A DNA stretch of 38,832 nt from Clostridia bacterium. Lineage in GTDB: Bacteria > Bacillota > Clostridia > Oscillospirales > Acutalibacteraceae. Location: positions 1-38,832 of the forward strand of contig JAFVIF010000047.1 in assembly GCA_017474125.1 (NCBI GenBank). The letters are read 5' to 3'. The notes under the pieces were generated by a model, which had not been told where the DNA came from, searched no databases, and worked only from the letters and a program-made list of their open reading frames with translations. The position numbers were made by a program, and so were the translations under genes. Below, piece by piece: positions 4,973 through 38,541 of this stretch (positions within the stretch are counted from its first letter, which is position 1; each line of letters opens with the position of its first letter).

Positions 4973-4998
4973 GTTTTTGCAATGTAAATTTATAAGCT

Positions 4999-5070
4999 TT
5001 TTGCAACTGACGGATAAGCGGATTACCGCGTGGGAGCATTAAGTGATAACATTTTGTCGACCGTCTGGGC
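4999..5070 (+). promoter_or_regulatory. ZTP (pfl) riboswitch aptamer
   Basis: The leader matches the conserved ZTP/pfl core as I remember it. There is an ACTGACGGATAA block (5006-5017), a small P2 hairpin GCGG-ATTA-CCGC (5018-5029), GTGGGAGCA (5030-5038), a variable linker, then CGACCGTCTGGGC (5059-5070), the hallmark 3' half. Known role: binding of ZTP/ZMP, the AICAR-derived alarmone of 10-formyl-THF shortage, switches on purine and folate one-carbon genes. This fits an operon carrying two formyltransferases and formate-THF ligase. The 3' GGGC overlaps the terminator's 5' arm, so ligand-stabilised folding should prevent termination. The outer P1 stem is weak by eye. Confidence 0.88.
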
Positions 5071-5106
5071 AGTTCCGAAAATCTTTAGCGGAACTGCCTT
5101 TATTTT
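5068..5106 (+). terminator. Riboswitch-controlled intrinsic terminator before purE
   Basis: Ten-base-pair stem GGCAGTTCCG (5068-5077) / CGGAACTGCC (5089-5098) followed by TTTATTTT. The 5' arm begins inside the conserved CTGGGC of the ZTP motif, giving mutually exclusive folds (an on-switch by anti-termination). Confidence 0.88.
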
Positions 5107-21454: not shown

Positions 21455-24400
21455 TTAATTGTTCGCAAGATAGAGCTTAAGCAACGCAAGGTCTGTAGTA
21501 TCAATCTCAATGTCGCCGTTCATATCTGCGCCGTCGGAGATATCAATACTGATTCCTGCAAGGAATAGCTTCAACGTTGCAAGGTCGGTGGTATCGATTT
21601 TGCCGTCACTGTCCACGTCACCGATTAATGTTTTTTCCTTCAAAAACACCTTAAGTACCGGATATCCGTCGGTGATAGCGAACTTATCGCCGAGAGGCAT
21701 ATTGGTGAGTGCATTTTCACCCTTCATTTGTTCAGTGCTTAACTGAGTCCAGGTAGTATAAGTTTCATTTGGAGCAACGGTAGAGTAGCAGTTAGTAGCT
21801 GTCTTAACTGCGTTACCTGTACTTGAACAGAGCCATAAACTGCCGTCGGCATAGCAATTTTCAAAAACAACAGTTTCGGGGCACTGCCAGGTAGAGCCAA
21901 CTATCTTGTTTTTCGAATAAGAACCGCCAACGTTAGCAAAGGAATAACAGTTAGATATTTTCACGTTAGGAGTCTGCAAAGTACCGCCCAAAATACCGCC
22001 GGAAGCCGGGTTAGTAGTGTCAAGGCGGTAAGTATTTACGTATACCGTTTCATCGGTAAAGCAAGAATCAATAAGAGTATTAACGTTTGACGTTTTTTGG
22101 GTCACAACACTACCTACAATACCTCCGGCACGGCCTAATATTTCAATATGGGAGTATCTTACGCCAACGTTTGTTACGTGGGTATTTTTGGTTATTTGAG
22201 GAATAAGTCCCGCATAGCCCGATGCAGATAAATGCGCACCGTAATTTTTGGGATAATAAATGCCGTAAACAATATGTCCGTTACCGTCAAAGTAACCCGT
22301 AAATACGGTGTCGCATATCCAAGTGGAGGGTGCATAGTTGTTCTTGGCCTCACCTGTAGACCAATCTACGCCGTTAATATCGTTTAAGTAAATATCGTTT
22401 TCCAGTCTGTAATATTTACCCTTGCCGCCGCCATTTATTGCATAAGCAAGTTCTTCGCCATTTGTAATAAGGTAAGGAGATTCTTCAGTACCTGCTCCTT
22501 CAAGAGCGCTTCCGATAAAGCCCGACCAAATCGCATTGGATTTTCCAACGAAAGACTTAAGTACGGGTGTACCGTTATAAGGCAGAGTATAAACATCTTT
22601 AAGCGACGCCATTTTGGTCATTGCGGCTGTGCCCTGCATTTCTTCAATAGCAAGAATAGTAATACCGTTTGTAGCAGTACCTAAAGTAGCAAAACAATTT
22701 GTAAACTTCATAGGGTTTTGGCCGTAAAGCTTAACGTTGGTTGCGTAGCAGTTAGTTACGGGGCAATTAGTACCGCTCCATACTCCGCCTACAATACCAC
22801 CGACAAAGCCGTCGGCTTCTACTAAACCAAGGTTATAGCAATTAGAAATACCGCTGACGTAACCCGAACCGTTACCTGCGCCAATCATACCGCCTGCCTC
22901 GGCGCCGAAAATATAAACGTTTTCGCCAACGTAACAGTTTTCAAGGCTTACGTCGTAAACTCCGCTTCCGGTTGTACCGACAAAGGCGGAAGCCGCGCCG
23001 TTAACAGCCTTAATATAAGAATCGTTTATCGCAAGATTTTTAATTACAGCGCCGTCACCTGCTCTGGCAATAAGACCTGCGCCGTGGTTCCATTTATTTT
23101 CTTCCGCTTTATAGTCGTTATCGATATAAAGACCTTTTATAACGTGATTTTTACCGTCGATAATACCCTCGAAACGAACAGCTTCGTTACTGCCACCCAA
23201 ATACCACTGGTGAGTATTTTGGTCAATAACTACGGATTTATTTTCCAAATCGACTACCATATCGTTAAGGAGAATATTATTTTGTACTTCGAAATAAACG
23301 CCCTTGTTATTATTGGTAACCGCCCAATATAAATGGCTTCCGTTATAAATCTTATAGGGGTTATTTTCAGTTCCGTCACCCTCGGTAGGTTTAAGTGAAG
23401 TGCCGTCCCAAACGTCTTCTAAAATGGTGAAAGCATCAAGAGCGCCGTCCTCGTAAACGATATCGGCTTCGGGTAAAATAAGCTTTTTAAGACCGTCAAC
23501 GTACTTATAAGCGGTATCGTCTACTCTTGTTACGGTTTTGCCATTAACAACAGTGGGTACGGTTAAAGTGCCTGTTGCAGGAACGTCACCGTAATAATGA
23601 AGAAGCTCAACGCCGTCGCCGTCGGGAAGGACTCTCCAGTCCCCTTCTATATAAGCCTTTTCGCCCGTTACGGCTTCGTGAGCAATATTACGGAGAATTA
23701 CACATTCCTCAGCAGTAAGCACACCCTCGGGATAGAAGGTTGCCTTCCTGCAATCTAATCCGAAAATCTTTTCAAGCCATACGCAGCCTGCAATATAGCG
23801 ACCTCTGATATTCAAATGGTGAATATTGTCGGTATAAAGACAGCCGTTCGCGCAAAGCTGGGCGTCGGTCAAGCCGGTGGTGGATTCAGCAACGTGGAAA
23901 TCACCGAAACCATATTCATCCTTTGCAAGCTGAACAGCTTTGCCCACAGGGATAATATCGGTTTCTTTGTTAAGGCCTAACATATCCGCAGCTTTTTCAT
24001 AGTTTGCTTCAATGTCTTTGAACATACCAACGCTATATTCGTAAGGCTCAGGCCAAATATCACGAGGTTCTGTTACACAAGTTTCACAGAAAGACCATGT
24101 TTGATTAATCATAACCTTAGCCTGAGGCTCGTACTCCTGTATGATAGAATAAAGGTCGGTAAGCCACGGCTTTTCTTCGGTCCAGTATGTATCAAAAACA
24201 GCCGCGGTGGAAGTACCCTGATGAAGAGTTACATAGTCGTAATCATCAGCATTGAACGCATCTTTCATTGTTTTGTAGCTTCCATAATCCATGACACCGT
24301 CGGTATAAAAACGGTAAACTGAAGAATTGTTATTATAAAATCCAACATGCTGTTCTAAAGTACAACCGCCGTAGTAAAGAACTGTAACGGTAACTTTTTT

Positions 24401-24577
24401 ACCCAAAGTTTCAGCTATTTTGGAAATAAACTGGGTAGAATTACAAGAATAACTGTTACCGATTGCAAGAATCTTTATAGGCTCTTCCTGCGGTTCCACA
24501 GCAGCGATAGGCATTGCTACCGCCATCAGTATAACACACAGAACAGCACTCAATATTTTCTTAAAGTAACTTTTCAT
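21455..24577 (-). CDS. Secreted SGNH-hydrolase-like protein with GLUG-type repeats and dockerin
   Basis: A 1040-residue secreted protein. A signal peptide (1-26) is followed by an SGNH/DUF4886-like domain (about 33-275) with the GDSL-like block IGNSYS (Ser42), the oxyanion-type YYGG, LHQGTS and DNIHHLN giving Asp250/His253. SGNH enzymes include carbohydrate esterases and lipases, and DUF4886 members are mostly uncharacterised. The middle has a short leucine-rich-type block, then two beta-helix-like regions with GLUG-style repeats (GGMIGAGNGSGYVSGISNCY, GYAGLIPQ). The C-terminus (984-1040) is a type I dockerin with two calcium loops (DVDSDGKIDTTD, DMNGDIEIDTTD); the second has Ile for the usual Gly. 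A dockerin implies attachment to a cohesin scaffold encoded elsewhere. AGGAGG ribosome site; -10-like TATAAT just upstream. Confidence 0.85.
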   Translation of the reverse strand: MKSYFKKILSAVLCVILMAVAMPIAAVEPQEEPIKILAIGNSYSCNSTQFISKIAETLGKKVTVTVLYYGGCTLEQHVGFYNNNSSVYRFYTDGVMDYGSYKTMKDAFNADDYDYVTLHQGTSTAAVFDTYWTEEKPWLTDLYSIIQEYEPQAKVMINQTWSFCETCVTEPRDIWPEPYEYSVGMFKDIEANYEKAADMLGLNKETDIIPVGKAVQLAKDEYGFGDFHVAESTTGLTDAQLCANGCLYTDNIHHLNIRGRYIAGCVWLEKIFGLDCRKATFYPEGVLTAEECVILRNIAHEAVTGEKAYIEGDWRVLPDGDGVELLHYYGDVPATGTLTVPTVVNGKTVTRVDDTAYKYVDGLKKLILPEADIVYEDGALDAFTILEDVWDGTSLKPTEGDGTENNPYKIYNGSHLYWAVTNNNKGVYFEVQNNILLNDMVVDLENKSVVIDQNTHQWYLGGSNEAVRFEGIIDGKNHVIKGLYIDNDYKAEENKWNHGAGLIARAGDGAVIKNLAINDSYIKAVNGAASAFVGTTGSGVYDVSLENCYVGENVYIFGAEAGGMIGAGNGSGYVSGISNCYNLGLVEADGFVGGIVGGVWSGTNCPVTNCYATNVKLYGQNPMKFTNCFATLGTATNGITILAIEEMQGTAAMTKMASLKDVYTLPYNGTPVLKSFVGKSNAIWSGFIGSALEGAGTEESPYLITNGEELAYAINGGGKGKYYRLENDIYLNDINGVDWSTGEAKNNYAPSTWICDTVFTGYFDGNGHIVYGIYYPKNYGAHLSASGYAGLIPQITKNTHVTNVGVRYSHIEILGRAGGIVGSVVTQKTSNVNTLIDSCFTDETVYVNTYRLDTTNPASGGILGGTLQTPNVKISNCYSFANVGGSYSKNKIVGSTWQCPETVVFENCYADGSLWLCSSTGNAVKTATNCYSTVAPNETYTTWTQLSTEQMKGENALTNMPLGDKFAITDGYPVLKVFLKEKTLIGDVDSDGKIDTTDLATLKLFLAGISIDISDGADMNGDIEIDTTDLALLKLYLANN

Positions 24578-24698: not shown

Positions 24699-26678
24699 TT
24701 ATCCGAATATATGCCTATAATAATCGCTTGCGGGAGCCTGACTGCAATAATTTATTTTATTGCGAACAACGGTTTTCATACTCTCTACGTAGCCCTCGGG
24801 GATTGTAACGGTATCGTTTACGGGAACGAACTTACCCTTTGAGGAATAGTAGGTACCAAGGTCGGTTTTCCAGTCGTAGTTTGTGTTATACACAAGGGCG
24901 GGTGCATCGGAGAAAACGTCTCTGCCGGGCATTAATCTTGAATCGAACTCGGTACCGAAAAGGTTAGACAGAGTAGGAAGAATATCAAGACTGAAGGTAG
25001 GAGAATCAACCACTATGGGCTCCATTTTTTCAAGACAGCCGCTCCATAGAATAAGACGGTTATGGTCGCGCTTAAAGTAATCGTTTACGTTATAGCCGTA
25101 AAGCTCGGAAAGATACGGCATATTACCAAAGGTGCCGCCATCGTCAAGTCCGTATGGGAAGTGGTCGGTGGAAATAACGATTACGGTATCATCGGCAATA
25201 CCCTTAAGCTCAAGCTCGCTTACCATATGGGTAAGGGCGTTTTCAAGCTCAAGATTTGCGGCAAGGTAGCCCTTTACGGTATCGGAATAGGGTAAATCCT
25301 TAACCTTATCCCAATTCTTACTGGTCATAGAGTTGCCGGTTCTTGTATAGGCGCTGTGTCCGCTAACCGACATATAATAAATGTTAAAGGGCTGTTTATC
25401 AATATACTCGGTAAGGGTGCCTTTAAACATTTCAAGGTCACTTTGAGGCCAAGCACGGGATACGTACTGCTCCATACCGTTGCCCATACCCATAAAGCCT
25501 TCTGAATAGCCTAAATTCTTATGGGTTTTGTTACGGTCATAATAGGTATAAGAGTTATTATGATAAGCCTTTCCGAAATAGCCGAGTCGGTCAAGCTGGC
25601 TTCCCATAGTATAGTAGTTAAGAGTTTTTGCGGTGTTCTTAAAGGAGCTTCCTCCTGCCATAGGCAGCATACCGAACACGTTCTGATATTCGCCGCCCGT
25701 AGTACCTGCGCTTGAAGGCTGATAATAATCGGTAAACTGAATACCCTTATTTGCAAGGCGGTAAAGGGTAGGTGTCAGGGTGGGGTCAATTACCTCAGCT
25801 GTAAAGGCCTCAGCCGAAATCATAATAAGGTTTTTACCCTTAAACAGTCCCGTATACTCGTTTTTCTTCGACGGTGTAAGACTGCTAACATAGGCATTAA
25901 GCTTTTTAATTTTACTGCTCGCGCCCTCGTTAAGCGCTTCAAAATCAAGTTCAAGCTTGTTATAGCCGTACTCCACGGGAGTGTCAACGGGAGGATCGTC
26001 GGGTGTTGGAGGATTGTCGATATCGAAGGATGATTCTCTGCCTAAAATTAAATACTTGGCATCAAGCCTTAAGCCACTTATAAGACCGAAGTTTTCAACT
26101 GCAGAACGGAAGTTGTATTCGGCTTTGTACATAGGAGCATAAATACTGCTCACCATAATAAGCAAGGAAGCAAGCACGTAGGTTAACACGGTGGTAAGTC
26201 CCGAAATAATGCGAACAACGGCATTTGACCTATATGCAGGAATGAGCTTCGAGCCAAAAATCAAATAAAAAGCAAGGGGTACAAAAAACAGTATAAGTAC
26301 GGGAATGCTTGTTAAAATGAGCTGAAAAATTTCGGCAGTATAGGTGGTTGCGGCATCTCCTGCCGTGCCGGTTACCATTCCGATATCGTAAAAGGTTTTA
26401 AAGAAACGGTAAATAAGGTATTCCACAATATAAGGAATGCTGGTTGCGCCTATAAGGCAGGCGGAAACTATTCGGTTAGTTTTGCGGTTTTTGGAAAGAG
26501 ACGAAAGAAGATAACCTATTCCGCCGTAAGCGATACTGAAAAGGAGCATATAAACGGTGCTTAACTTAAATACACCGCCAACCGTCGCAATACGAAAAAG
26601 CAGCTCGTAGTAAATTACGGCTACGGGAAAAAGCAGCATAAAATACAAATGTCCAAACTTTTTAATTTTTTTACTCAT
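24699..26678 (-). CDS. LtaS-like phosphoglycerol transferase (sulfatase fold)
   Basis: A 659-residue membrane enzyme: five N-terminal membrane segments (about 11-30, 40-60, 70-90, 117-142, 155-180), a linker rich in Asp/Pro (220-235), then an extracellular alkaline-phosphatase/sulfatase domain. Metal and catalytic positions are suggested by ISAEAF (E290), SSAGTTGGE (T326/T327, equivalent to the LtaS catalytic Thr), and STDHFPYG near residue 475. Family members polymerise glycerol phosphate for lipoteichoic acid or decorate glycans with phosphoglycerol; the exact product is open. It has an unusually long structured leader (26679 to about 26885) containing the palindromic element described separately. 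Weak ribosome site AGGGATG. Confidence 0.88.
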   Translation of the reverse strand: MSKKIKKFGHLYFMLLFPVAVIYYELLFRIATVGGVFKLSTVYMLLFSIAYGGIGYLLSSLSKNRKTNRIVSACLIGATSIPYIVEYLIYRFFKTFYDIGMVTGTAGDAATTYTAEIFQLILTSIPVLILFFVPLAFYLIFGSKLIPAYRSNAVVRIISGLTTVLTYVLASLLIMVSSIYAPMYKAEYNFRSAVENFGLISGLRLDAKYLILGRESSFDIDNPPTPDDPPVDTPVEYGYNKLELDFEALNEGASSKIKKLNAYVSSLTPSKKNEYTGLFKGKNLIMISAEAFTAEVIDPTLTPTLYRLANKGIQFTDYYQPSSAGTTGGEYQNVFGMLPMAGGSSFKNTAKTLNYYTMGSQLDRLGYFGKAYHNNSYTYYDRNKTHKNLGYSEGFMGMGNGMEQYVSRAWPQSDLEMFKGTLTEYIDKQPFNIYYMSVSGHSAYTRTGNSMTSKNWDKVKDLPYSDTVKGYLAANLELENALTHMVSELELKGIADDTVIVISTDHFPYGLDDGGTFGNMPYLSELYGYNVNDYFKRDHNRLILWSGCLEKMEPIVVDSPTFSLDILPTLSNLFGTEFDSRLMPGRDVFSDAPALVYNTNYDWKTDLGTYYSSKGKFVPVNDTVTIPEGYVESMKTVVRNKINYCSQAPASDYYRHIFG

Positions 26679-26721: not shown

Positions 26722-26900
26722 AAGTATAATGACTATGTTGATGTCGAAACATGGCAAAGTCTTGTTTCGACTGCGAATTCTTTGAATTCGCAAACAATTA
26801 CCAAGGGTAATTGAACATATTCATTGCAACATAGAGCCGATTTTATCAGCTTCGTCGAGAAATTGAGTGAATTTCTCGACATTCGATAGTCATTATAGTT
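26722..26900. repeat. Multi-hairpin palindromic element with terminal inverted repeats (MITE-like)
   Basis: A non-coding block of about 179 bp. The ends are inverted repeats: TATAATGACTAT (26725-26736) against ATAGTCATTATA (26886-26897), extended by ATGTCGA further inside on both ends. Inside are CTATGTTG (26733-26740) / CAACATAG (26827-26834), enclosing three hairpins: GTCGAAAC/GTTTCGAC (26743-26750, 26764-26771), TGCGAATTC-TTT-GAATTCGCA (26772-26792), CAATTACC-AAG-GGTAATTG (26795-26813). Next come AGCCGAT-TTT-ATCAGCT with one mismatch and an 11-bp stem GTCGAGAAATT/AATTTCTCGAC (26854-26864, 26870-26880). TA dinucleotides flank it (26720-26721, 26901-26902). Nothing in it looks coding. It may be a miniature mobile element or a structured leader RNA; copy number elsewhere is unknown. 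Confidence 0.8.
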
Positions 26901-26920
26901 TATCCTTAGCAAAAAATCAA
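26892..26920 (-). promoter_or_regulatory. Promoter reading through the palindromic element toward the LtaS-like gene
   Basis: On the minus strand, TTGATT (26920-26915), 17-bp spacer, perfect TATAAT (26897-26892). The -10 lies inside the element's terminal repeat while the -35 lies outside it. A transcript from about 26885 would carry the whole hairpin series as a leader of roughly 207 bases. Confidence 0.65.
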
Positions 26921-26961: not shown

Positions 26962-28104
26962 TTATAAATTGACCGCCATTAAAGCAAGGCGCTTTGCTGA
27001 CAGAGTAAGGGAAGAAATAAGTGCCTTTTCACAAACCGAATGTATTCCGTCACCCATAACGCCAAGTCCGTCAACGGTGGGGATACCGTAGCTTGTCATA
27101 TCGGCAGCATCGCTTCCGCCACCCGAAAGGGTACGACCCATTCTTTCCATACCGTATTTCTCGAAAATTTCCTCTATTTTCTCATAAAGCTCAGTATTTT
27201 TACGGTTTTCCTCCATTGCAGCTCTTTCGCTTAAAAGCTCATAGCTACAGGAAGTACCCTCTACCGTCGTCTTTTCGGCAATCTCCTTTACTCTTCGCTT
27301 AATGAAAGCATTTTGCTCATCGTTCATAAAGCGGAAATCGTAATTAAAGGTGCATTTATCGGGAACAACGTTTTCGGTCGTTCCGCCGTTTATTATTCCG
27401 CAGTTAGAGGTAATGCCGTTATTATCCTTAAACTGTTCAAGCTCAATAATTTTATATGCCGCTTCGGCTATAGCGTTAGCCCCTGCCGAAGCATTTGACG
27501 CGTGAGTAGCCTTACCCGTAACGGTAAAGCGGTAGCGTAAAACACCTTTTCTTATCAGCACCATACCCCCTGCCCTTGCGCCCTCGCAGTTAATAAAGGC
27601 TTTTGCGTTTTTCGCTTTTTCCGCCATAAATTTTACGGTAGCTTTATTGCTTCCCTTACTGCTTGTTTCCTCATCGCTTTGAAGGATAAGCTTAATTTTT
27701 TTATCCTTAAAGCCGCTAAGCTTTAGCGCGTTCATAGCCAAAAGTGCCGCAACAATACCGCCCTTACAGTCAAGCACGCCGGGTCCGTAAATATAATCAT
27801 CATCTACCCTTACGGCAGGATAACCGAAGGAGCCTACGGGATGCACCGTATCTATATGCCCCGAAAAGCAAACAGCTTCGCCCTGGGCATTTTCATTCAT
27901 AGTAATACAAACGGCGTTGCCCGAAACCCTTTGCTCACAAACTTCAACCTTAAATCCAAGACTTTGGGCCTTTTTAATCACAAGCTGTCCCGCTTTGTCT
28001 ACACCCTCTTTATAATCGGTAGGACTTTCTATATTACAAAATTCCTCCCAAAACGAAAGGTATTCATCCTTTAAGGCTTCGATAATTTCAAGCAATTTAT
28101 TCAT
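26962..28104 (-). CDS. M20-family metallopeptidase (CPG2/ArgE/DapE type)
   Basis: A 380-residue dizinc amidohydrolase of the M20 family. Visible ligands and catalytic residues: SGHIDTVHP (His ligand plus catalytic Asp), YGPGVLDCKGG (bridging Asp), SDEETSS (catalytic Glu and Glu ligand), FINCEGA, and GDGIHSVCE near the C-terminus (last His ligand). The dimerisation/lid domain lies about 175-285 (TGKATHASNASAGANAI). Such enzymes remove terminal groups from small peptides or N-acyl amino acids; the substrate cannot be read. ATG at 28104 is chosen over an upstream GTG because GGGAG lies 8 bases before it. Cytosolic, no signal peptide. Confidence 0.9.
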   Translation of the reverse strand: MNKLLEIIEALKDEYLSFWEEFCNIESPTDYKEGVDKAGQLVIKKAQSLGFKVEVCEQRVSGNAVCITMNENAQGEAVCFSGHIDTVHPVGSFGYPAVRVDDDYIYGPGVLDCKGGIVAALLAMNALKLSGFKDKKIKLILQSDEETSSKGSNKATVKFMAEKAKNAKAFINCEGARAGGMVLIRKGVLRYRFTVTGKATHASNASAGANAIAEAAYKIIELEQFKDNNGITSNCGIINGGTTENVVPDKCTFNYDFRFMNDEQNAFIKRRVKEIAEKTTVEGTSCSYELLSERAAMEENRKNTELYEKIEEIFEKYGMERMGRTLSGGGSDAADMTSYGIPTVDGLGVMGDGIHSVCEKALISSLTLSAKRLALMAVNL

Positions 28105-28162
28105 TATATTCACTCCCGTTTATTTCCTATATATTATCATATTTATGCACAAAAGTATATAA

Positions 28163-28198: not shown

Positions 28199-31100
28199 TT
28201 ATTTTGGACTGAATTCTTTAATCACCCCTGCAAGGAAAAGCTTAAGATTTGCAAGGTCGCTTGTATTAATTATACCGTCAAAATCAACGTCGCCGTTAGC
28301 TTCGTTAATTTCGCTTCCGGTTGCAAGATGCAATTTCATCATCGCAAGGTCGGTCGTATCCACTTTACCGTCGTCATTCACGTCACCGTAAAGCAATTCG
28401 GAAGTATTTTCCTGAGTGCTGAATTCTATGCTGTCACTTATTGATTTTTTGCCATCGGCATAGGTAACAACCGCATAAGCCGTATACTCGCCCTTTTCAA
28501 GGCTCTCTATATTTACCCTGGCAACTTGACCGTTAACCGTCGGGTTACCAATTGCCTTATCGTTAACAAAGAATTCGACCTTCTCAATTCCGTAATCAAT
28601 TCTATAGGGTGAATTGACCGTTAAAACACCGTCCAATTTTTCAACGACAGGTTTTACTTCATTCTCTGCGTATACGGTAGAGGCAATTTCTAAACCGAAA
28701 TCTTTAACAACCTGCTCTTTAACCTCGTTGTCGGCAGTAAGAACGAATATAACGTTTTCGTTTTTCTCAAGAGCTACTAAAGCTTCCCTTACGTTTACGG
28801 TATATTCGGTAGCATCGGTAAGGGTTATGGCAGCTATTTCGGTACCGCCGTAAACGTTTGATAACTTCATACCAACGGTAGAGGTATCATTACCGTAAGC
28901 ATTATTCCAGGTAAGCTTATCAACACTTACGTCACTATCCAACGCATAAAGCTTTAATACAGCACCCTGAATGGGATTAACAACACTAAATTTAAAGTTA
29001 CCGTCAATTACGTGATAATAACCTGTTTTATTAAAGCTTACGTAGGTTTTTGCTATACCGCTTTCTCCGCCACTTGAGCTTTTCTTAAGCTCAAAGGTAT
29101 TATTGGGAACAACCGCAATATTATCCTTTGCACCACCGTTTATAAGAGCTATTAAGGATGTTTTCGATTTATTTTCGACTCCTGCTTTTTCAAAGCTTAA
29201 TACCGGAGAAATACTGTCTGCTGACTTACCGCCCTCAACTGTAACAACAATATCATCGATGTATATAGTTGAGGTTGAGGCATTGGAAGAAACAACTATA
29301 GCAGAACCAAGGCCTACCATTTGTTCGGTTACTTCTATTTCAAATTTTACCGTATGCCATTCGTTAACACTAAGTCCGTATTTACCGGGTTCACTGTTAT
29401 AAAGAGTTCCGTCGATATAACGGTTAATGGTCATTTTTGAATTCAAGAAATACTGTTGAGAATTTACCTGATCTATGGTAGTTAGTACACCTGCGTTACC
29501 ACCGGGATTTACGTTAAGCTGACGGAAGGTCACTGTATATTTCTTTCCAACGTCAGCAGCGGTAAATTTATCGTTTTGTGTAATAAGTCCTTTAAAGGAA
29601 GCGCTATGAGTATAGGCACTTCTTTCAAAATAGAATACGTCGTTAGTATTATCCAGCGGATCTTTGGTTACGCCATAGTTAACGCCTGGGTTTACAAGAC
29701 CTACGTTTTTATATTCGGTCAGTCCTGTAAAATCAGTGGTTCCGGGGGTATAATCCATCTCGATATATAAGTCGCCCGAAAATTCTTCCACAACTATATC
29801 GTCAATATAAATACCGGTAGCAGCCCAGCCCGAAGCAATAATCAGCGCAGTTGCTTTATTGCCGAGTATATTTTCATTAACGGTAATTGTAAACTCAACC
29901 GTATTCCACACGTTAGTTGACGTAGAACTTACCGATTTAGTTATTCCGTTTAATAACGTTCCCGAAGTAGCGGAGCCAACAGTTCCTATATTACAATAGT
30001 TACCTGCAGTAGCACCGGGTGCCGTTACGTACTGCTTAAAGGAAACCTTATAGGTTTTACCGATATCGCTTTCATCAAAGGTGTCGTCACCCTGAATAAG
30101 TCCCGTAAGGGCAATATTCTGAGCATAACCGCTTGGATTCTCACTTGTTCCGCATTTTTCCATAAACAGAACGTTGTTATTTTCGTTCACAGGGTCTTTT
30201 CGCACTTCAACAGCGTAACCGTTCATAGCAGAGCTTTTAACGTATGCAGAATAGCTGTCCATATTTTCGAAGGTTACGTTAGAAGCTCTTACACTGCGGT
30301 TTTCCTTTACAATAATAAAGGTAACCGCATTGTAATTTGCATTTTTCATAGTCTTAACGTAATCTTTAACGTCTAATTCTACGGTTTTGCTTCCTGTTAC
30401 CGTTTCACTGCCTATAAGCACCGTCTTGCTTTCATCCACACCGTTACCGTCTATTTGGTTAGCAAGGGCGGTATTCCAGGTAATGCCTTTTGTAAAGTTT
30501 TCGGCAAAACGGGTATCATCATTAAGCACACCGTAAACGCTGAATTTTGCACTGCCGTCAGAAGTAGCGTTCAGTTTTAACGTAATACTGTCGCTTTCTG
30601 TATCAAACTCACTTATGGGGAATTTAATATAGCCCTTTACAGTGTCCGCAGTATTATCCTTAAGCACACCTTCTACATAGTTTTCGCCATTAATAACGCT
30701 GTCAGCTTTTTCGCCTGAAGAAATAGTAGCGGCAGTGCCCGTAATATCAGATTTTTCGGGAGTGTAAAGCACTAAGGTTGCGGAAAGCTTTGCTTCTTCT
30801 CCGTCATATTCCTTAGAAACTACACCAAAACCGCCCGACAAAATCTCTACCTTAAAGGCGTCAAGGTAGTAATTGCCGTTTTTATTAGGTACAACGGTGA
30901 TTGCACGGTTATTACCGTCAATCATAGCCTGGTCAACAGTAAGTATATATTCAACGTAATTCCATTCGCCGGGCTTTACACTAAAGGCTTCGGTATGAAC
31001 ACCGCTTAACGCTTTGTGCTCATACGCTCCAACACTGACCATACTATCCAATTCGGTTTTAATCCAGAAGCTTGCCTTTACGGTAAGTCCCAAATGCTCG

Positions 31101-33508
31101 CTTGTCAGCTTATCGGTGCCAAAGGATTTAAGGAACTTAATACGGTTAGCATTTTGTTGACGGTTTGTAACGTAAATACTCTTGCTTCCGTCTTTAGCGT
31201 CGTCAGAAAGCGTCATAGTAGCACTTCCACCACCGTATCGGTAGTCTACGTCGTAAATAAGTTGGCTTGTAGAAGCGATATTATCGAAGCTCTGCTCGTA
31301 GAAAACCTTTTCCTCTGTAGTATCAAGTGCAAAGCTAACGGTATTGCCGTCGGTATTCTTAACGTAATCGGTAACGTCAACGGTGGTTACCTGAGAGTCA
31401 ACAGGCACGTTAGCCAAAAGTTCTCCAACCTCGGGAGCGTTGTTATAAGTAACGGTGTTTTCATCAAAGGAACCGACAGAATAAACCAGAGCATTGCCGT
31501 TTTTGTTCTCTTTACGGTCTAAAAGCAAAAGCGCCTTTGTAACGTTACTAAATCCCTGAAGGTTTTCAAAGGAAATAAGACCTTTATTATGTTCGCTAAC
31601 CGTATTACTAATCTTAATAAGGTCTTCCCCGCCAAAGTTTTTATCGGGAGAAACGGAAGAAACGTAGGTATCGGCAACGGGAGTTAAAAGCTTATCACCG
31701 CTTATGGTAAATACCTTTTTAAAGGGTACACCCATTTTTACGCCGTCCTTAGCCTTTGTTTCGGCACCCACCGTTATAGCATAGGAGGAAGCGTTTATAA
31801 TCATAGAAGAAGTAAACTTAAAGGTGGTGCTTCCGTGAAGAATCTCCCATTCACCCTCTACCGCTTTACCGTCGGAAAGGCGGATAACCTTTAAGTTTTC
31901 CTTTACGCTGTCCACGTCCATAGCGCGGGAGAACTTAACCGTAACGGGTTCCTCCAAAGCATCAAAAACCTTATTACTGCTTGGGGTTGCCCAAAGTACC
32001 TCGGGAGCTTCATCTCTGTAAGCGGCTCTTACATGGTTATCGAGCCAGCACCAGATTTCATTAAACTGTTCAATCTGCTTAACGTTATCATAGCCGTAAG
32101 CAGGGTTATGACCAAGCCCTTCGGGAATCAGGAAGTCGGATTCTATTTCAGGGTGAGAATCCAAATACTCTTTAGCCGCAGGAATATAGGTATAAAAATT
32201 ACCCGTAGTATCAGCAGTACCTATAGACGAAACAATAGGCACGCTGTCTTCGGTCATAAGGCGCTCTCTGTACTGGCAAATACCTGCGCCCGAACCCGAA
32301 TAAGCAACCGTTATATTGCTGGAAATAGGAGTGTTTGTGCCTTCATAATAAAGCCAGGGTTGTTCGCCTTGATAGCCTTTCGGGTCCTTACCCTCGGGAA
32401 CGTATTCACCGAAATCTAAAATTTCGCCCATTTCTTCATGCTTTGTATTGGCAAGTATTGCAGGACCGGGGCCGCTTTTTGAAAAGCCCCAAGCAGATAT
32501 ATAATCACCGTTATAACCGTAACTCTCTGCCATATATCTTATTCTTCTTATAGCGGCGGAATGTACTGCATTTGCATTGGTTGTACCCAAAGTAAAGGAA
32601 GAATACGGCAACGTATAGTTTCCGTAATATTTATAGTGGTCCTGTCTTGACATAGGGATATATTCATGATCGTAAATTACTCCTGCATAGCCCTGTAAAA
32701 CCGCAGTAGTGAAATACGGACGTACCGCACTGCTTAAAGACATTGTGCGCTCCTCAGCCGAAGAAGCAAGTGCGTAAACGGGAACCGTTTCTTTGGGGTT
32801 AGAAGGATAAACAACGTCCATTCTCAAATCAAAATCAATAGGACTGCCATCCTTTTTTATCATATCGTATATAGTCTCGGCATAAGGAAGGTCGTTTTTG
32901 TTTTCATCCTTAGCAATACCGTCGGGGCCTGCATAGTATGTATTCCAAAGCCAAAGTATGTATTCGTTAGTTCCGTTAAGAGCCATTTCATCAAGGGAAT
33001 AATAGAAAATTTCTCTGTCTATTCTGCAACCCGACGGAACAACGTACATAGCATCGTGAGTTTTTCTGACGTAGCCAAAGTCGTAGGCTTTAGATTTGAA
33101 AGCGCCTGTAAATATCTTATGAACGCTCCAGCCGAATTCATTACCAACGGATAAGGGATTATCCATATAGTCAAGCACGCTGACGCAGTAGCCGTCGGCA
33201 AGCATATCCTCAATAATATCTTCATCGCTGTCGGTACCTATTCTTTTTTCATTATGGCCGACTACGTAAAGAATAGCAACACCGTTGGATGTTACGCTAT
33301 CCCTATAAAAGGTAGAGATATTAACCGGCACACCCAAATGGCCGTCGGTTTCCAGCTCTTTAGTGCCTTTTAAATCAGCAGAAAAGCTTTCTCTTAATTT
33401 TGCCGTATCGCTTCCTATACTTTCGGCAGAAGCACTAATTGTGCACAGTGCAAAAAAGCAGGAAACAAGCATAGAAAAAGTCAAAAGTATTGCTATAATT
33501 CGTTTCAT
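28199..33508 (-). CDS. Secreted multimodular alpha/beta-hydrolase with DNRLRE/CBM-like modules and dockerin
   Basis: A 1769-residue secreted protein. Signal peptide 1-28 (ISASA). An alpha/beta-hydrolase-like domain (about 50-495) has the nucleophile elbow WGFSKSG (Ser343), a likely acid D433 in GTADTTGNF and His467 in EGLGHNPAYG, suggesting an esterase or peptidase. An SbsA/Big_5-type Ig-like domain follows (about 501-605), then three DNRLRE (CBM96-like) regions (about 606-765, 920-1090, 1400-1590) alternating with galactose-binding-like modules (GNYYLDAFKVE, IYIDDIVV x2), a C-terminal Ig-like domain, and a type I dockerin (about 1706-1769: DVNDDGKVDTTD, DVDFDGIINTSD). It probably binds a polysaccharide and removes an ester substituent while docked to a cellulosome-like scaffold; this is inference. 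Transcribed divergently from an AraC-type regulator. Module borders are estimates by eye. Confidence 0.85.
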   Translation of the reverse strand: MKRIIAILLTFSMLVSCFFALCTISASAESIGSDTAKLRESFSADLKGTKELETDGHLGVPVNISTFYRDSVTSNGVAILYVVGHNEKRIGTDSDEDIIEDMLADGYCVSVLDYMDNPLSVGNEFGWSVHKIFTGAFKSKAYDFGYVRKTHDAMYVVPSGCRIDREIFYYSLDEMALNGTNEYILWLWNTYYAGPDGIAKDENKNDLPYAETIYDMIKKDGSPIDFDLRMDVVYPSNPKETVPVYALASSAEERTMSLSSAVRPYFTTAVLQGYAGVIYDHEYIPMSRQDHYKYYGNYTLPYSSFTLGTTNANAVHSAAIRRIRYMAESYGYNGDYISAWGFSKSGPGPAILANTKHEEMGEILDFGEYVPEGKDPKGYQGEQPWLYYEGTNTPISSNITVAYSGSGAGICQYRERLMTEDSVPIVSSIGTADTTGNFYTYIPAAKEYLDSHPEIESDFLIPEGLGHNPAYGYDNVKQIEQFNEIWCWLDNHVRAAYRDEAPEVLWATPSSNKVFDALEEPVTVKFSRAMDVDSVKENLKVIRLSDGKAVEGEWEILHGSTTFKFTSSMIINASSYAITVGAETKAKDGVKMGVPFKKVFTISGDKLLTPVADTYVSSVSPDKNFGGEDLIKISNTVSEHNKGLISFENLQGFSNVTKALLLLDRKENKNGNALVYSVGSFDENTVTYNNAPEVGELLANVPVDSQVTTVDVTDYVKNTDGNTVSFALDTTEEKVFYEQSFDNIASTSQLIYDVDYRYGGGSATMTLSDDAKDGSKSIYVTNRQQNANRIKFLKSFGTDKLTSEHLGLTVKASFWIKTELDSMVSVGAYEHKALSGVHTEAFSVKPGEWNYVEYILTVDQAMIDGNNRAITVVPNKNGNYYLDAFKVEILSGGFGVVSKEYDGEEAKLSATLVLYTPEKSDITGTAATISSGEKADSVINGENYVEGVLKDNTADTVKGYIKFPISEFDTESDSITLKLNATSDGSAKFSVYGVLNDDTRFAENFTKGITWNTALANQIDGNGVDESKTVLIGSETVTGSKTVELDVKDYVKTMKNANYNAVTFIIVKENRSVRASNVTFENMDSYSAYVKSSAMNGYAVEVRKDPVNENNNVLFMEKCGTSENPSGYAQNIALTGLIQGDDTFDESDIGKTYKVSFKQYVTAPGATAGNYCNIGTVGSATSGTLLNGITKSVSSTSTNVWNTVEFTITVNENILGNKATALIIASGWAATGIYIDDIVVEEFSGDLYIEMDYTPGTTDFTGLTEYKNVGLVNPGVNYGVTKDPLDNTNDVFYFERSAYTHSASFKGLITQNDKFTAADVGKKYTVTFRQLNVNPGGNAGVLTTIDQVNSQQYFLNSKMTINRYIDGTLYNSEPGKYGLSVNEWHTVKFEIEVTEQMVGLGSAIVVSSNASTSTIYIDDIVVTVEGGKSADSISPVLSFEKAGVENKSKTSLIALINGGAKDNIAVVPNNTFELKKSSSGGESGIAKTYVSFNKTGYYHVIDGNFKFSVVNPIQGAVLKLYALDSDVSVDKLTWNNAYGNDTSTVGMKLSNVYGGTEIAAITLTDATEYTVNVREALVALEKNENVIFVLTADNEVKEQVVKDFGLEIASTVYAENEVKPVVEKLDGVLTVNSPYRIDYGIEKVEFFVNDKAIGNPTVNGQVARVNIESLEKGEYTAYAVVTYADGKKSISDSIEFSTQENTSELLYGDVNDDGKVDTTDLAMMKLHLATGSEINEANGDVDFDGIINTSDLANLKLFLAGVIKEFSPK

Positions 33509-36666: not shown

Positions 36667-36742
36667 CCGGGTGTAGCGCAGTTGGTAGCGCGCCTGCTTT
36701 GGGAGCAGGATGCCGCAGGTTCGAATCCTGTCACTCGGACCA
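36667..36742 (+). tRNA. tRNA-Pro (anticodon UGG)
   Basis: A 76-base cloverleaf: acceptor CCGGGTG/CACTCGG with one G-T pair, D-stem GCGC/GCGC, anticodon stem CCTGC/GCAGG with loop TTTGGGA (anticodon TGG), T-arm GCAGG-TTCGAAT-CCTGT, discriminator A and an encoded CCA. Confidence 0.97.
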
Positions 36743-36848: not shown

Positions 36849-38541
36849 ATGCGGATTTAGTAATATACTCGACGGCTACACCTTTTCGTGTATCTGCCTT
36901 GTAATTACTTCCGCATTCGGGTATTTCAATATACCCAATGAATTTGTAATGGATCATAATCCTCTGACTACGATTTTTACCAACGCCTTCAGTTTCATAA
37001 ACCGTTATCTCATCTATGAGTTCCCGAAGAAGCGGTGCAGTCAGCTTTTGCATTTCCATAAATCTTCGGATAGCATTGATAAAGCGGTCTTTGTTCTGTT
37101 GCATTGTACCGAGATTGTTTATCCTCTCGTTTAGGGAAGCAATCTTGGTTTTCAGGTCCATACGCTCCACTTCGTATTTGTGGGATAACTGCATAAACCA
37201 TTCATCCGTTACCTTGCCCGAAACATTGTCCTCGTAGAGTTTTTCGTAAAGCTCAGCAACCTTTTGGTTTCGTGCCGTACAGCGTTGTAGTTCGCCTTGC
37301 AGAGCTTTTTGCTCGTTGATAATATCCTTTTGTGTCTTTTGAGCAAGTAGGTCTGCAAAAGCTTCCTCGTCGCTCTGTAAGAACGTTGCCATTCGCTTTA
37401 GTTCAAGCATTACCACTTGTTCTATTGCATCAGCTCGGATATAATGCCTTGACTCACAAGTACCCCTTGTATCCACCTTGTAGTTGGAGCAACTGAAATA
37501 CTGAATATCTTTGTTTATTGTGTTTACGTGTGACCACAACTTGCTACCGCAATCGGCACAGTAGAGTAAATCACAAAACATATTCTTTTCGGCATTATCC
37601 GCTTTCGGTGCTCGGCGTTTGGTTTTCTTGGTGAGCTTCTGTACCGCTTCAAAGGTTTCACGGTCAATAATCGGCTCGTGAACATTCTTGAACACCGCCC
37701 AATTTTCTTCCGGGTTAGGGATACGGGCTTTGTTCTTAAATGACTTTGAATAGGTCTTGAAGTTGATTACATCACCACAGTATTCCTGCTGAGCAAGTAT
37801 CTTGGCTATGGTGGATTTACACCATTTGTAAGGATTGGGTTGTGCCTTCTTGCCTCCTCTGCCAAGACCTTTTTCTCTCCAATACGCCATCGGAATTAAC
37901 ACCTTTCGTTCTTGTAGGATGCGGGCAATAGTTTCGTTGCCCTTGCCCTCCAAGCACATACGGAATATATCTTGCACCACTTGTGCTGCTTCGAGATCAA
38001 CAATCCACTTCTTTTTGTTTTCGGGAGCTTTCAAGTATCCGTATGGTGGCTGAGATAGCGGCTCTCCTGAATTGCCACGAAGTCTGTGGGAGCTTCTGAC
38101 CTTACGGCTAATATCTCTTGCATACATTTCGTTCATAACGTTACGAAAGGGTGCAAGCTCGTTTTCTCCGTCTGCACTGTCCACACAGTCATTTACTGCT
38201 ATGAAGCGGATATTTCTATCGGGAAAGTAAGTGTCGGTGTAATATCCCACTTGCAGATAATCTCTGCCAAGTCGGGACATATCCTTAACGATAATCACGC
38301 CTACATATCCCATTTCAATATCCTCAAGCAGTTTTTGAAATCCGGGGCGGTTAAAGTTTGTTCCTGTATAGCCGTCATCCACATAACTGCGAGTATTGGA
38401 AAAACCGTGTTCCTTTGCGTATTTCTGCAACAGCTTCTTTTGATTAATGATAGAGTTACTATCGTTATCCGTCCCGTCATCACGTGATAGTCGGCAGTAT
38501 AAAGCGGTTATACCGACATTATCTTTTTTCTTCGACTGCAT
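36847..38541 (-). CDS. Large serine recombinase (TnpX/resolvase-type integrase)
   Basis: A 564-residue site-specific recombinase. Resolvase catalytic domain about 8-155 with the nucleophile Ser19 in YCRLSRDD and the DMSRLGRDYLQ motif. The recombinase DNA-binding domain (about 170-310) includes PYGYLK. A zinc ribbon follows (CADCGSK ... SCSNYK ... TCESRHY), then a long coiled coil (about 385-480) and a C-terminal DUF4368-like segment. Enzymes of this type excise and integrate conjugative or mobilisable elements using short att sites. It lies at the end of a mobile element next to tRNA-Pro; the rest of the element extends beyond the right edge. Its ATG directly follows the stop of the 75-residue gene (TAAATG), with AAAGGAGG inside that gene, indicating coupled translation. 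Confidence 0.93.
   Translation of the reverse strand: MQSKKKDNVGITALYCRLSRDDGTDNDSNSIINQKKLLQKYAKEHGFSNTRSYVDDGYTGTNFNRPGFQKLLEDIEMGYVGVIIVKDMSRLGRDYLQVGYYTDTYFPDRNIRFIAVNDCVDSADGENELAPFRNVMNEMYARDISRKVRSSHRLRGNSGEPLSQPPYGYLKAPENKKKWIVDLEAAQVVQDIFRMCLEGKGNETIARILQERKVLIPMAYWREKGLGRGGKKAQPNPYKWCKSTIAKILAQQEYCGDVINFKTYSKSFKNKARIPNPEENWAVFKNVHEPIIDRETFEAVQKLTKKTKRRAPKADNAEKNMFCDLLYCADCGSKLWSHVNTINKDIQYFSCSNYKVDTRGTCESRHYIRADAIEQVVMLELKRMATFLQSDEEAFADLLAQKTQKDIINEQKALQGELQRCTARNQKVAELYEKLYEDNVSGKVTDEWFMQLSHKYEVERMDLKTKIASLNERINNLGTMQQNKDRFINAIRRFMEMQKLTAPLLRELIDEITVYETEGVGKNRSQRIMIHYKFIGYIEIPECGSNYKADTRKGVAVEYITKSA

What the first reader, a model, noticed from the sequence alone, without database searches (positions are those of the whole stretch)
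26722..26900. Highly structured 179-bp element with inverted-repeat ends and at least five internal hairpins
Almost every base can be placed in a stem: terminal inverted repeats (TATAATGACTAT, then a second shared block ATGTCGA), a middle stem CTATGTTG/CAACATAG enclosing three perfect hairpins, and two further hairpins. The loops are often only 3 bases. Such density by chance in an AT-rich spacer is very unlikely. The ends and flanking TA dinucleotides suggest a miniature transposable element of an IS630/mariner-like kind. Alternatively it is a structured RNA in the leader of the LtaS-like gene. I recognise no known riboswitch in it.
Basis: partly seen in the sequence, partly recalled or inferred. 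Interest (0 to 1): 0.75.

Follow-up and report, generated by a model that had tools for sequence, protein, structure and literature searches.

The report
Mobile hairpin element inside a promoter
A short, protein-free mobile DNA element built of hairpin modules appears to have inserted into the promoter of a sulfatase gene in an uncultured gut bacterium, with ends that rebuild the promoter motif which the insertion would otherwise have split.

Summary
The hairpins are real: z about -8.8 on each strand, 0 of 200 shuffles as stable. The element is a dispersed repeat: 16 BLAST matches at 13 places in its own genome, and patchy elsewhere (15 of 398 family genomes by BLAST, some marginal; 11 of 394 order genomes by covariance model). 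Intact copies are dimers of two modules, each a closing stem plus three hairpins, joined by CATT-NN-AATG; 29 of 49 tested pairs show compensatory changes. The window copy (core 26728-26894) lost 44 bp. Curated ends read N-AT-AAYG/AATT (107 of 107 with AT). An empty site in a congener and five tandem junctions fit a 2-bp AT duplication better than the TA of IS630/mariner. The congener has TTGATT-17-TATACT before the sulfatase gene; the window has TTGATT-17-TATAAT-element: insertion in the -10 box, with TATAAT rebuilt by the element's AATG end. Pairing is strand-symmetric and copies face genes both ways (21 vs 20), which speaks against a dedicated leader RNA. The mobilising enzyme was not found. 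New variant of a known kind (bacterial MITE).

The parts
26728..26894 (.). element core AATG...CATT (167 bp; internally deleted copy of a dimer that is 217 bp with its TAT/ATA borders in the nearest intact relatives)
   Evidence: copies; model match 26725-26897, E 5.8e-23
26726..26727 (.). AT next to the left end, one copy of the inferred 2-bp duplication
26895..26896 (.). AT next to the right end, second copy of the inferred duplication
26743..26771 (.). module 1, hairpin 1 (GTCGAAA...TTTCGAC)
   Evidence: fold; covarying helix in relatives (helix 2)
26772..26792 (.). module 1, hairpin 2 (TGCGAATTC-TTT-GAATTCGCA)
   Evidence: fold, helix 3
26795..26813 (.). module 1, hairpin 3 (CAATTACC-AAG-GGTAATTG)
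   Evidence: fold; aligned; not among the pairs counted
26822..26829 (.). remnant of the module junction CATT-GC-AATG (CATTGCAA left); the 44-bp deletion point lies here
   Evidence: comparison with L029 and L002
26834..26852 (.). module 2, short hairpin (AGCCGAT type)
   Evidence: fold, helix 5
26854..26880 (.). module 2, terminal-side hairpin GTCGAGAAATT...AATTTCTCGAC
   Evidence: fold, helix 6
26892..26897 (-). -10 hexamer TATAAT of the sulfatase-gene promoter, made of the flanking T, the AT and the element's AAT
26915..26920 (-). -35 hexamer TTGATT, 17-bp spacer, collinear with the congener's TTGATT
24699..26678 (-). sulfatase-domain (LtaS-like) gene whose leader would hold the element
   Evidence: PF00884, E 4.4e-18; ORF

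Best explanation
It is an internally deleted copy of a non-autonomous, MITE-like mobile DNA element of gut Clostridia. The intact element is a dimer of two modules, each a closing stem (AATG...CATT) with three hairpins, joined by CATT-NN-AATG. It inserts at sites like (Y)T-AT-A(R) and duplicates the AT. Because its ends begin AATG, insertion into a -10 box such as TATACT leaves TATAAT at each end, so the promoter can survive and the element becomes the leader of the downstream gene. Here this happened in the promoter of the sulfatase gene. Shown by sequence: dispersion, dimer plan, covariation, empty site in a congener, position between a -35/-10 pair and the gene. Inferred: the AT duplication, promoter activity and transcription of the element, and that the DNA fold (not an RNA) is what is maintained. 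Unknown: the enzyme that moves it.
For: 16 BLAST matches at 13 places in the own genome. A pattern of ends and junction only, without hairpin sequence, matched 13 of 398 family genomes (one, G302, judged chance), control pattern 0. 97.7% of 1502 cells paired, covariation 0.359 vs 0.134 shuffled, 0 of 500, at most 0.063 when slid. Empty site in G001 with TTGATT-17-TATACT, next to a 26-bp aligned stretch. AT at 107 of 107 curated ends, outer T at 99. Five tandem junctions read CATT-AT-AAT (L033, L066, L122, L124; L192). TTG 16-17 bp outside the terminal TATAAT at 20 of 107 ends against 39 of 645 other YTATAR sites. 38 of 59 elements have a likely gene start within 110 nt of an end. G-T in 14 and A-C in 12 pair columns, orientation 21 vs 20.
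Against: No mobilising enzyme or autonomous relative was found. The duplication rests on between-species comparison; of nine sets printed only L073/L172 bears on it, by equal length with diverged sequence. The curated ends were chosen for recognisable termini, so 107 of 107 is not an unbiased count. The promoter scan found 1 promoter-like site where shuffles give 1.6. Other TATAAT hexamers in the same loci have TTG at 16-17 bp just as often (43 of 258). The association of a good -35 with a downstream gene is weak (9 of 15 against 31 of 92, p 0.05). Some copies are not in a -10 box: L132 lies downstream of a native promoter and L005 upstream of one. No transcript data.
Confidence: 0.72

Rival explanations
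1. A conventional IS630/Tc1/mariner-type MITE with TA duplication, moved by a DDE_3 transposase.
For: Ends read TA-TAATG...CATTA-TA in most copies; TA-flanked bacterial MITEs are common (PMC2229807 passages).
Against: The five tandem junctions read CATTATAATG-like, not CATTATATAATG; the outer T varies (8 of 107) while the following A never does; L073 would need a CA/TA mismatch; PF13358 in 0 of 12 hosts, though the same search rang in 3 of 14 control genomes.
Confidence: 0.12
2. A cis-regulatory RNA (riboswitch-like leader) of the sulfatase gene.
For: Strong covarying stems; the element lies between the -10 hexamer and the start codon.
Against: The congener's orthologue lacks it; no Rfam match for the element; ten downstream genes examined belong to unrelated families or none; orientation 21 vs 20 and no clear G-U excess; the window copy is degenerate yet sits in a normal context.
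Confidence: 0.05
3. Moved by a single-strand (HUH/Y1) enzyme that recognises the hairpins, like REP/REPIN elements and RAYT proteins.
For: Shape-conserved, strand-symmetric hairpins at DNA level; Y1_Tnp (PF01797) genes in 9 of 12 hosts.
Against: Three hosts (G001, G006, G517) have no PF01797 match; 15 PF01797 loci carry no element ends by inspection; the target preference is the same on both sides (outer T 49 of 54 and 51 of 55), unlike a one-strand target; no tag is shared by all subfamilies next to the hairpin.
Confidence: 0.15
4. Moved by a serine recombinase whose 2-bp crossover is AT; the palindromic junction would be an old recombination site.
For: A 2-bp AT repeat in a TTATAA-like site resembles the crossover of small resolvases (recalled, from no call); CATT-NN-AATG is kept in all 31 aligned copies; PF00239 in 11 of 12 hosts.
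Against: None of 26 PF00239 loci has element-like ends within the flanks held; host G106 has no PF00239 match; the junction letters also form the closing stems, which explains their conservation.
Confidence: 0.15
5. The covariation is mutational, not selected: template switching inside palindromes copies one arm onto the other (mechanism recalled, from no call).
For: Few G-T cells (29 of 1502) and near-perfect Watson-Crick stems on both strands.
Against: The same plan of six hairpins and junction recurs in eight families of the order and in one genome of another order with very different stems, which correction alone would not keep.
Confidence: 0.25

Closest known systems
BOX elements of Streptococcus pneumoniae (PMC3049150: passages and the Discussion seen)
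   Same: Short, modular, interspersed, strongly folded, non-coding in origin, presumed non-autonomous and mobile, able to enter transcripts.
   Different: Here a dimer of two three-hairpin modules with AATG ends, an inferred AT duplication and positions in or near -10 boxes; no sequence comparison with BOX modules was run.
RUP of S. pneumoniae (PMC2229807 passages)
   Same: MITE with terminal inverted repeats and a dinucleotide target.
   Different: RUP is linked there to IS630-Spn1 and TA; here AT fits better and PF13358 is absent from 12 of 12 hosts.
Correia elements of Neisseria (PMC10969869 and PMC2229807 passages)
   Same: MITE that affects promoters of adjacent genes.
   Different: Correia elements carry promoters; here the end completes or rebuilds the -10 hexamer of a target promoter.
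CIR elements of Caulobacter and Brucella (PMC2229807 passages)
   Same: Two folded arms joined by a linker.
   Different: CIR has two long stem-loops with a GANTC motif; here two modules of three hairpins with a palindromic junction.
REPIN/RAYT (PMC3116915 and PMC2817692: search listing and start of abstract only)
   Same: Paired palindromic modules moved in trans.
   Different: Much longer modules with three hairpins each; no Y1 gene found carrying the ends.

Membership tests
bacterial MITE | short, non-coding, dispersed copies with common ends | tested here: met
bacterial MITE | terminal inverted repeats | tested here: met
   ATAATGR at both ends; longer repeats only within subfamilies
bacterial MITE | target-site duplication | tested here: inconclusive
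   AT inferred from one congener site, one length match and five tandem junctions; between-species only
bacterial MITE | an autonomous relative with the same ends | tested here: inconclusive
   none among PF00239, PF13358 and PF01797 genes of 12 hosts each; other transposase families not searched
IS630/Tc1/mariner MITE | TA target duplication | tested here: not met
   five tandem junctions and the window site fit AT
IS630/Tc1/mariner MITE | DDE_3 transposase in the host | tested here: not met
   0 of 12 hosts
REP/RAYT | Y1 gene beside the element | tested here: not met
   15 PF01797 loci, no element ends by inspection
BOX element | boxA/boxB/boxC sequence modules | not tested
   no comparison run
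known structured RNA (Rfam 15) | match at the family's gathering score | tested here: not met
   window: only tRNA and ZTP riboswitch elsewhere; six relatives searched at E up to 1: five matches, all below gathering score
cis-regulatory RNA | conserved stems with compensatory changes | tested here: met
   29 of 49 pairs
cis-regulatory RNA | fixed strand relative to the gene, one class of genes | tested here: not met
   21 vs 20 orientations; unrelated genes

The most novel reading that the evidence does not exclude
An undescribed class of mobile element of gut Clostridia whose identity is its DNA shape (two three-hairpin modules joined by a palindromic junction) more than its sequence, moved by an unidentified enzyme with a 2-bp AT stagger, and adapted to live in -10 boxes because its AATG ends rebuild TATAAT after insertion.
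Probability: 0.4. Interest if true: 0.78.

Novelty: new variant of a known kind. Interest (0 to 1): 0.6.

Why it matters
If true, it shows a simple way for a mobile element to enter a promoter without breaking it: supply AATG, so that TAT plus AATG is again TATAAT. It also warns that strong stem covariation in an intergenic repeat need not mean a functional RNA; strand symmetry (G-T against A-C, orientation to genes) separates the two. The shape-conserved dimer raises a testable question: which enzyme recognises folded DNA of this form?

Tried and rejected
IS630/mariner origin: tested by junctions and PF13358, rejected. Riboswitch or leader RNA: Rfam, orthologue, gene and orientation tests, rejected. 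Serine recombinase partner: 26 PF00239 loci scanned with up to two mismatches for an end motif; the matches lie in unrelated sequence, by inspection. Y1/RAYT partner: 15 PF01797 loci, none with element ends by inspection. Phages and plasmids: the structural pattern gave 12 viral stretches without the hairpins, by inspection; a stem pattern gave 0 viral matches; blastn of one copy (L087) gave 0 in the plasmid and phage collections. A TA or TATA duplication was my first reading and was dropped. A roughly 22-bp terminal repeat was also a first reading (note); it does not hold for G921. Orthologue search: 13 flanks queried in three congeneric genomes; ten elements had a counterpart and were aligned, nine printed; the site itself could be compared in L073 and, without discriminating, in L132; the rest were too diverged there or, like L005, carry the element away from the aligned part.

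Literature: six searches ran and none of the titles listed describes this element; only openly licensed PubMed Central papers were searched, and most listed papers were not opened.

Full report
Observation. The inverted-repeat ends and hairpins are in the sequence. The 179 nt fold at -67.1 and -65.5 kcal/mol on the two strands, z -8.78 and -8.94, and 0 of 200 shuffles fold as well. They lie in the 283-bp spacer between an M20 peptidase gene (26962-28113, minus) and a sulfatase-domain gene (24699-26678, minus).

A dispersed repeat. BLAST of the 179 bp against the own genome (2.0 Mb, 79 contigs, 86% complete) gave 16 matches at 13 places, the window included; many begin or end at TATAATG or CATTATA, others are fragments. 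Of 60 genomes (own included) 4 have matches, one in another family. With a 217-bp copy as query 15 of 398 family genomes match at E <= 0.001, of which several are marginal (1e-4 to 1e-3). Named records with the nearest sequence are metagenome-assembled Oscillospiraceae and Clostridia, some labelled yak, roe deer or sheep colon.

Architecture. The nearest intact relatives are 217 bp; the window copy lacks 44 bp between two TTGCAA repeats. Copies show a dimer: TATAATG-[three hairpins]-CATT-NN-AATG-[three hairpins]-CATTATA. A pattern of ends and junction only, without hairpin sequence, matched 13 of 398 family genomes, and the reversed control pattern none in the rows listed; one of the 13 (G302) lacks the dense fold and looks like a chance coding match. 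Single modules of 104 bp (L005-L007), shorter derivatives of 57-99 bp and unlike module pairs (L035, L083) occur.

Covariation. 31 dimers were aligned (71% mean column identity). RNAalifold gave 44 pairs, 29 with compensatory changes. In a 49-pair structure 97.7% of 1502 cells pair; the covariation score is 0.359 against 0.134 in shuffles (0 of 500 as high) and at most 0.063 when partners are slid. The tool warns that relatedness inflates such scores, and the structure was derived from the same alignment. Third hairpins were left out of that count because their registers differ between subfamilies. More distant copies have other stems in the same plan: G517 and G567, and G921 of another order.

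Distribution. Model R1 matched 11 of 394 genomes of the order, in 8 families, with strict filters and at most 6 candidates scored per genome, and 2 of 341 genomes of the class, own included. Counts of copies are therefore lower bounds.

Insertion site. Orthologous DNA of the congener G001 has no element. It reads TTGATT-N17-TATACT before the sulfatase start; the window reads TTGATT-N17-TATAAT-element-CATTATACT. A 26-bp stretch (84.6%) that ends 10-11 nt before TTGATT in both makes the promoters collinear. The simple scan finds this pair in both, but it finds 1 site in the window region where shuffles give 1.6, and 4 in the G001 region where shuffles give 0.8, so the collinearity, not the scan, carries the argument. 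G002, the other congener, had no match there. Over 107 ends of 55 curated elements the two letters next to AAYG/AATT are AT in 107, the next letter out is T in 99; these elements were chosen for recognisable ends. The preference is alike on the two sides (outer T 49 of 54 and 51 of 55). A 2-bp AT duplication fits the window site, the length of the L073/L172 pair (28 against 28 bases by hand count, diverged sequence) and five tandem junctions that share one AT (L033, L066, L122, L124, L192). In L033 two elements sit at one TTGACA-17-TATAAT promoter, the second at the AT of the first. All of this is between species or within one genome, so the duplication is inferred.

Promoters. TTG begins a hexamer at spacing 16 in 9 and at 17 in 11 of 107 ends, against a mean of 2.3 over the 36 other spacings from 8 to 45. 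Other YTATAR sites in the same loci have TTG at 16 or 17 in 39 of 645, other TATAAT hexamers in 43 of 258: element ends look as promoter-like as native TATAAT hexamers and more so than other possible targets. TGn precedes TATAAT in 20 of 107 ends against 25 of 258 (p 0.02) and 45 of 645. Ends with a good -35 have a gene beyond the element in 9 of 15 against 31 of 92 (p 0.05). Of 59 elements 38 have a likely gene start within 110 nt of an end. Most ends have no recognisable -35, and targeting cannot be told from selection.

RNA or DNA. In the counted pairs G-T occurs in 14 and A-C in 12 pair columns (29 and 14 of 1502 cells), and of the gene-facing directions that could be oriented 21 have module 1 first and 20 module 2 first (orientation assigned by a sequence rule for 56 of 59). 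A functional RNA should favour one strand. I read the fold as maintained in DNA, or as kept by template-switch correction of palindromes, which makes covariation without selection (recalled).

Mobiliser. Not found. PF13358: 0 of 12 hosts. PF00239: 11 of 12 hosts, 26 loci, none with the ends. PF01797: 9 of 12 hosts (a slightly different set of 12), 15 loci, none with the ends. Other transposase families were not searched.

Known kinds. It works like a MITE and resembles BOX elements in being modular and folded (PMC3049150, passages and Discussion) and bacterial MITEs in general (PMC2229807 and PMC10969869, passages). No named family is shown to include it. Six literature searches listed no description of it.

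Noticed in passing
window 4993-5077 (+): ZMP/ZTP riboswitch, 53.7 bits against a gathering score of 39.
   Followed up: no
window 38083-38505 (-): Serine recombinase (resolvase domain PF00239, E 7.8e-21, open frame of 564 aa) at the end of the window, about 1.3 kb from the tRNA-Pro gene at 36667-36742; possibly part of an integrated element.
   Followed up: no
L256 (G000:C61), about 1290-1350: Divergent Y1 transposase gene (PF01797, E 2.2e-4) in the own genome with a GTAG-tagged palindrome-like sequence beside it, as in RAYT/REP systems; seen, not tested.
   Followed up: partly
L010 (G000:C34), just outside the element end: A run of short hairpins separated by ATGAAATA-like spacers, another repeat kind.
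   Followed up: no
window 21455-24577 (-): Large DUF4886 protein with a C-terminal dockerin domain (PF16227, PF00404); the 28199-33508 product ends in a similar-looking stretch by eye.
   Followed up: no
contig ends in G000 and G006, e.g. L002, L003, L004, L034, L036, L038, L041, L043: Many copies lie at contig ends, so the repeat probably breaks assemblies and copy numbers are underestimates.
   Followed up: no
L014, L042: Very short forms (57 and 67 bp) with one hairpin, whose two ends come from different subfamilies, as if fused inside hairpin 1.
   Followed up: partly
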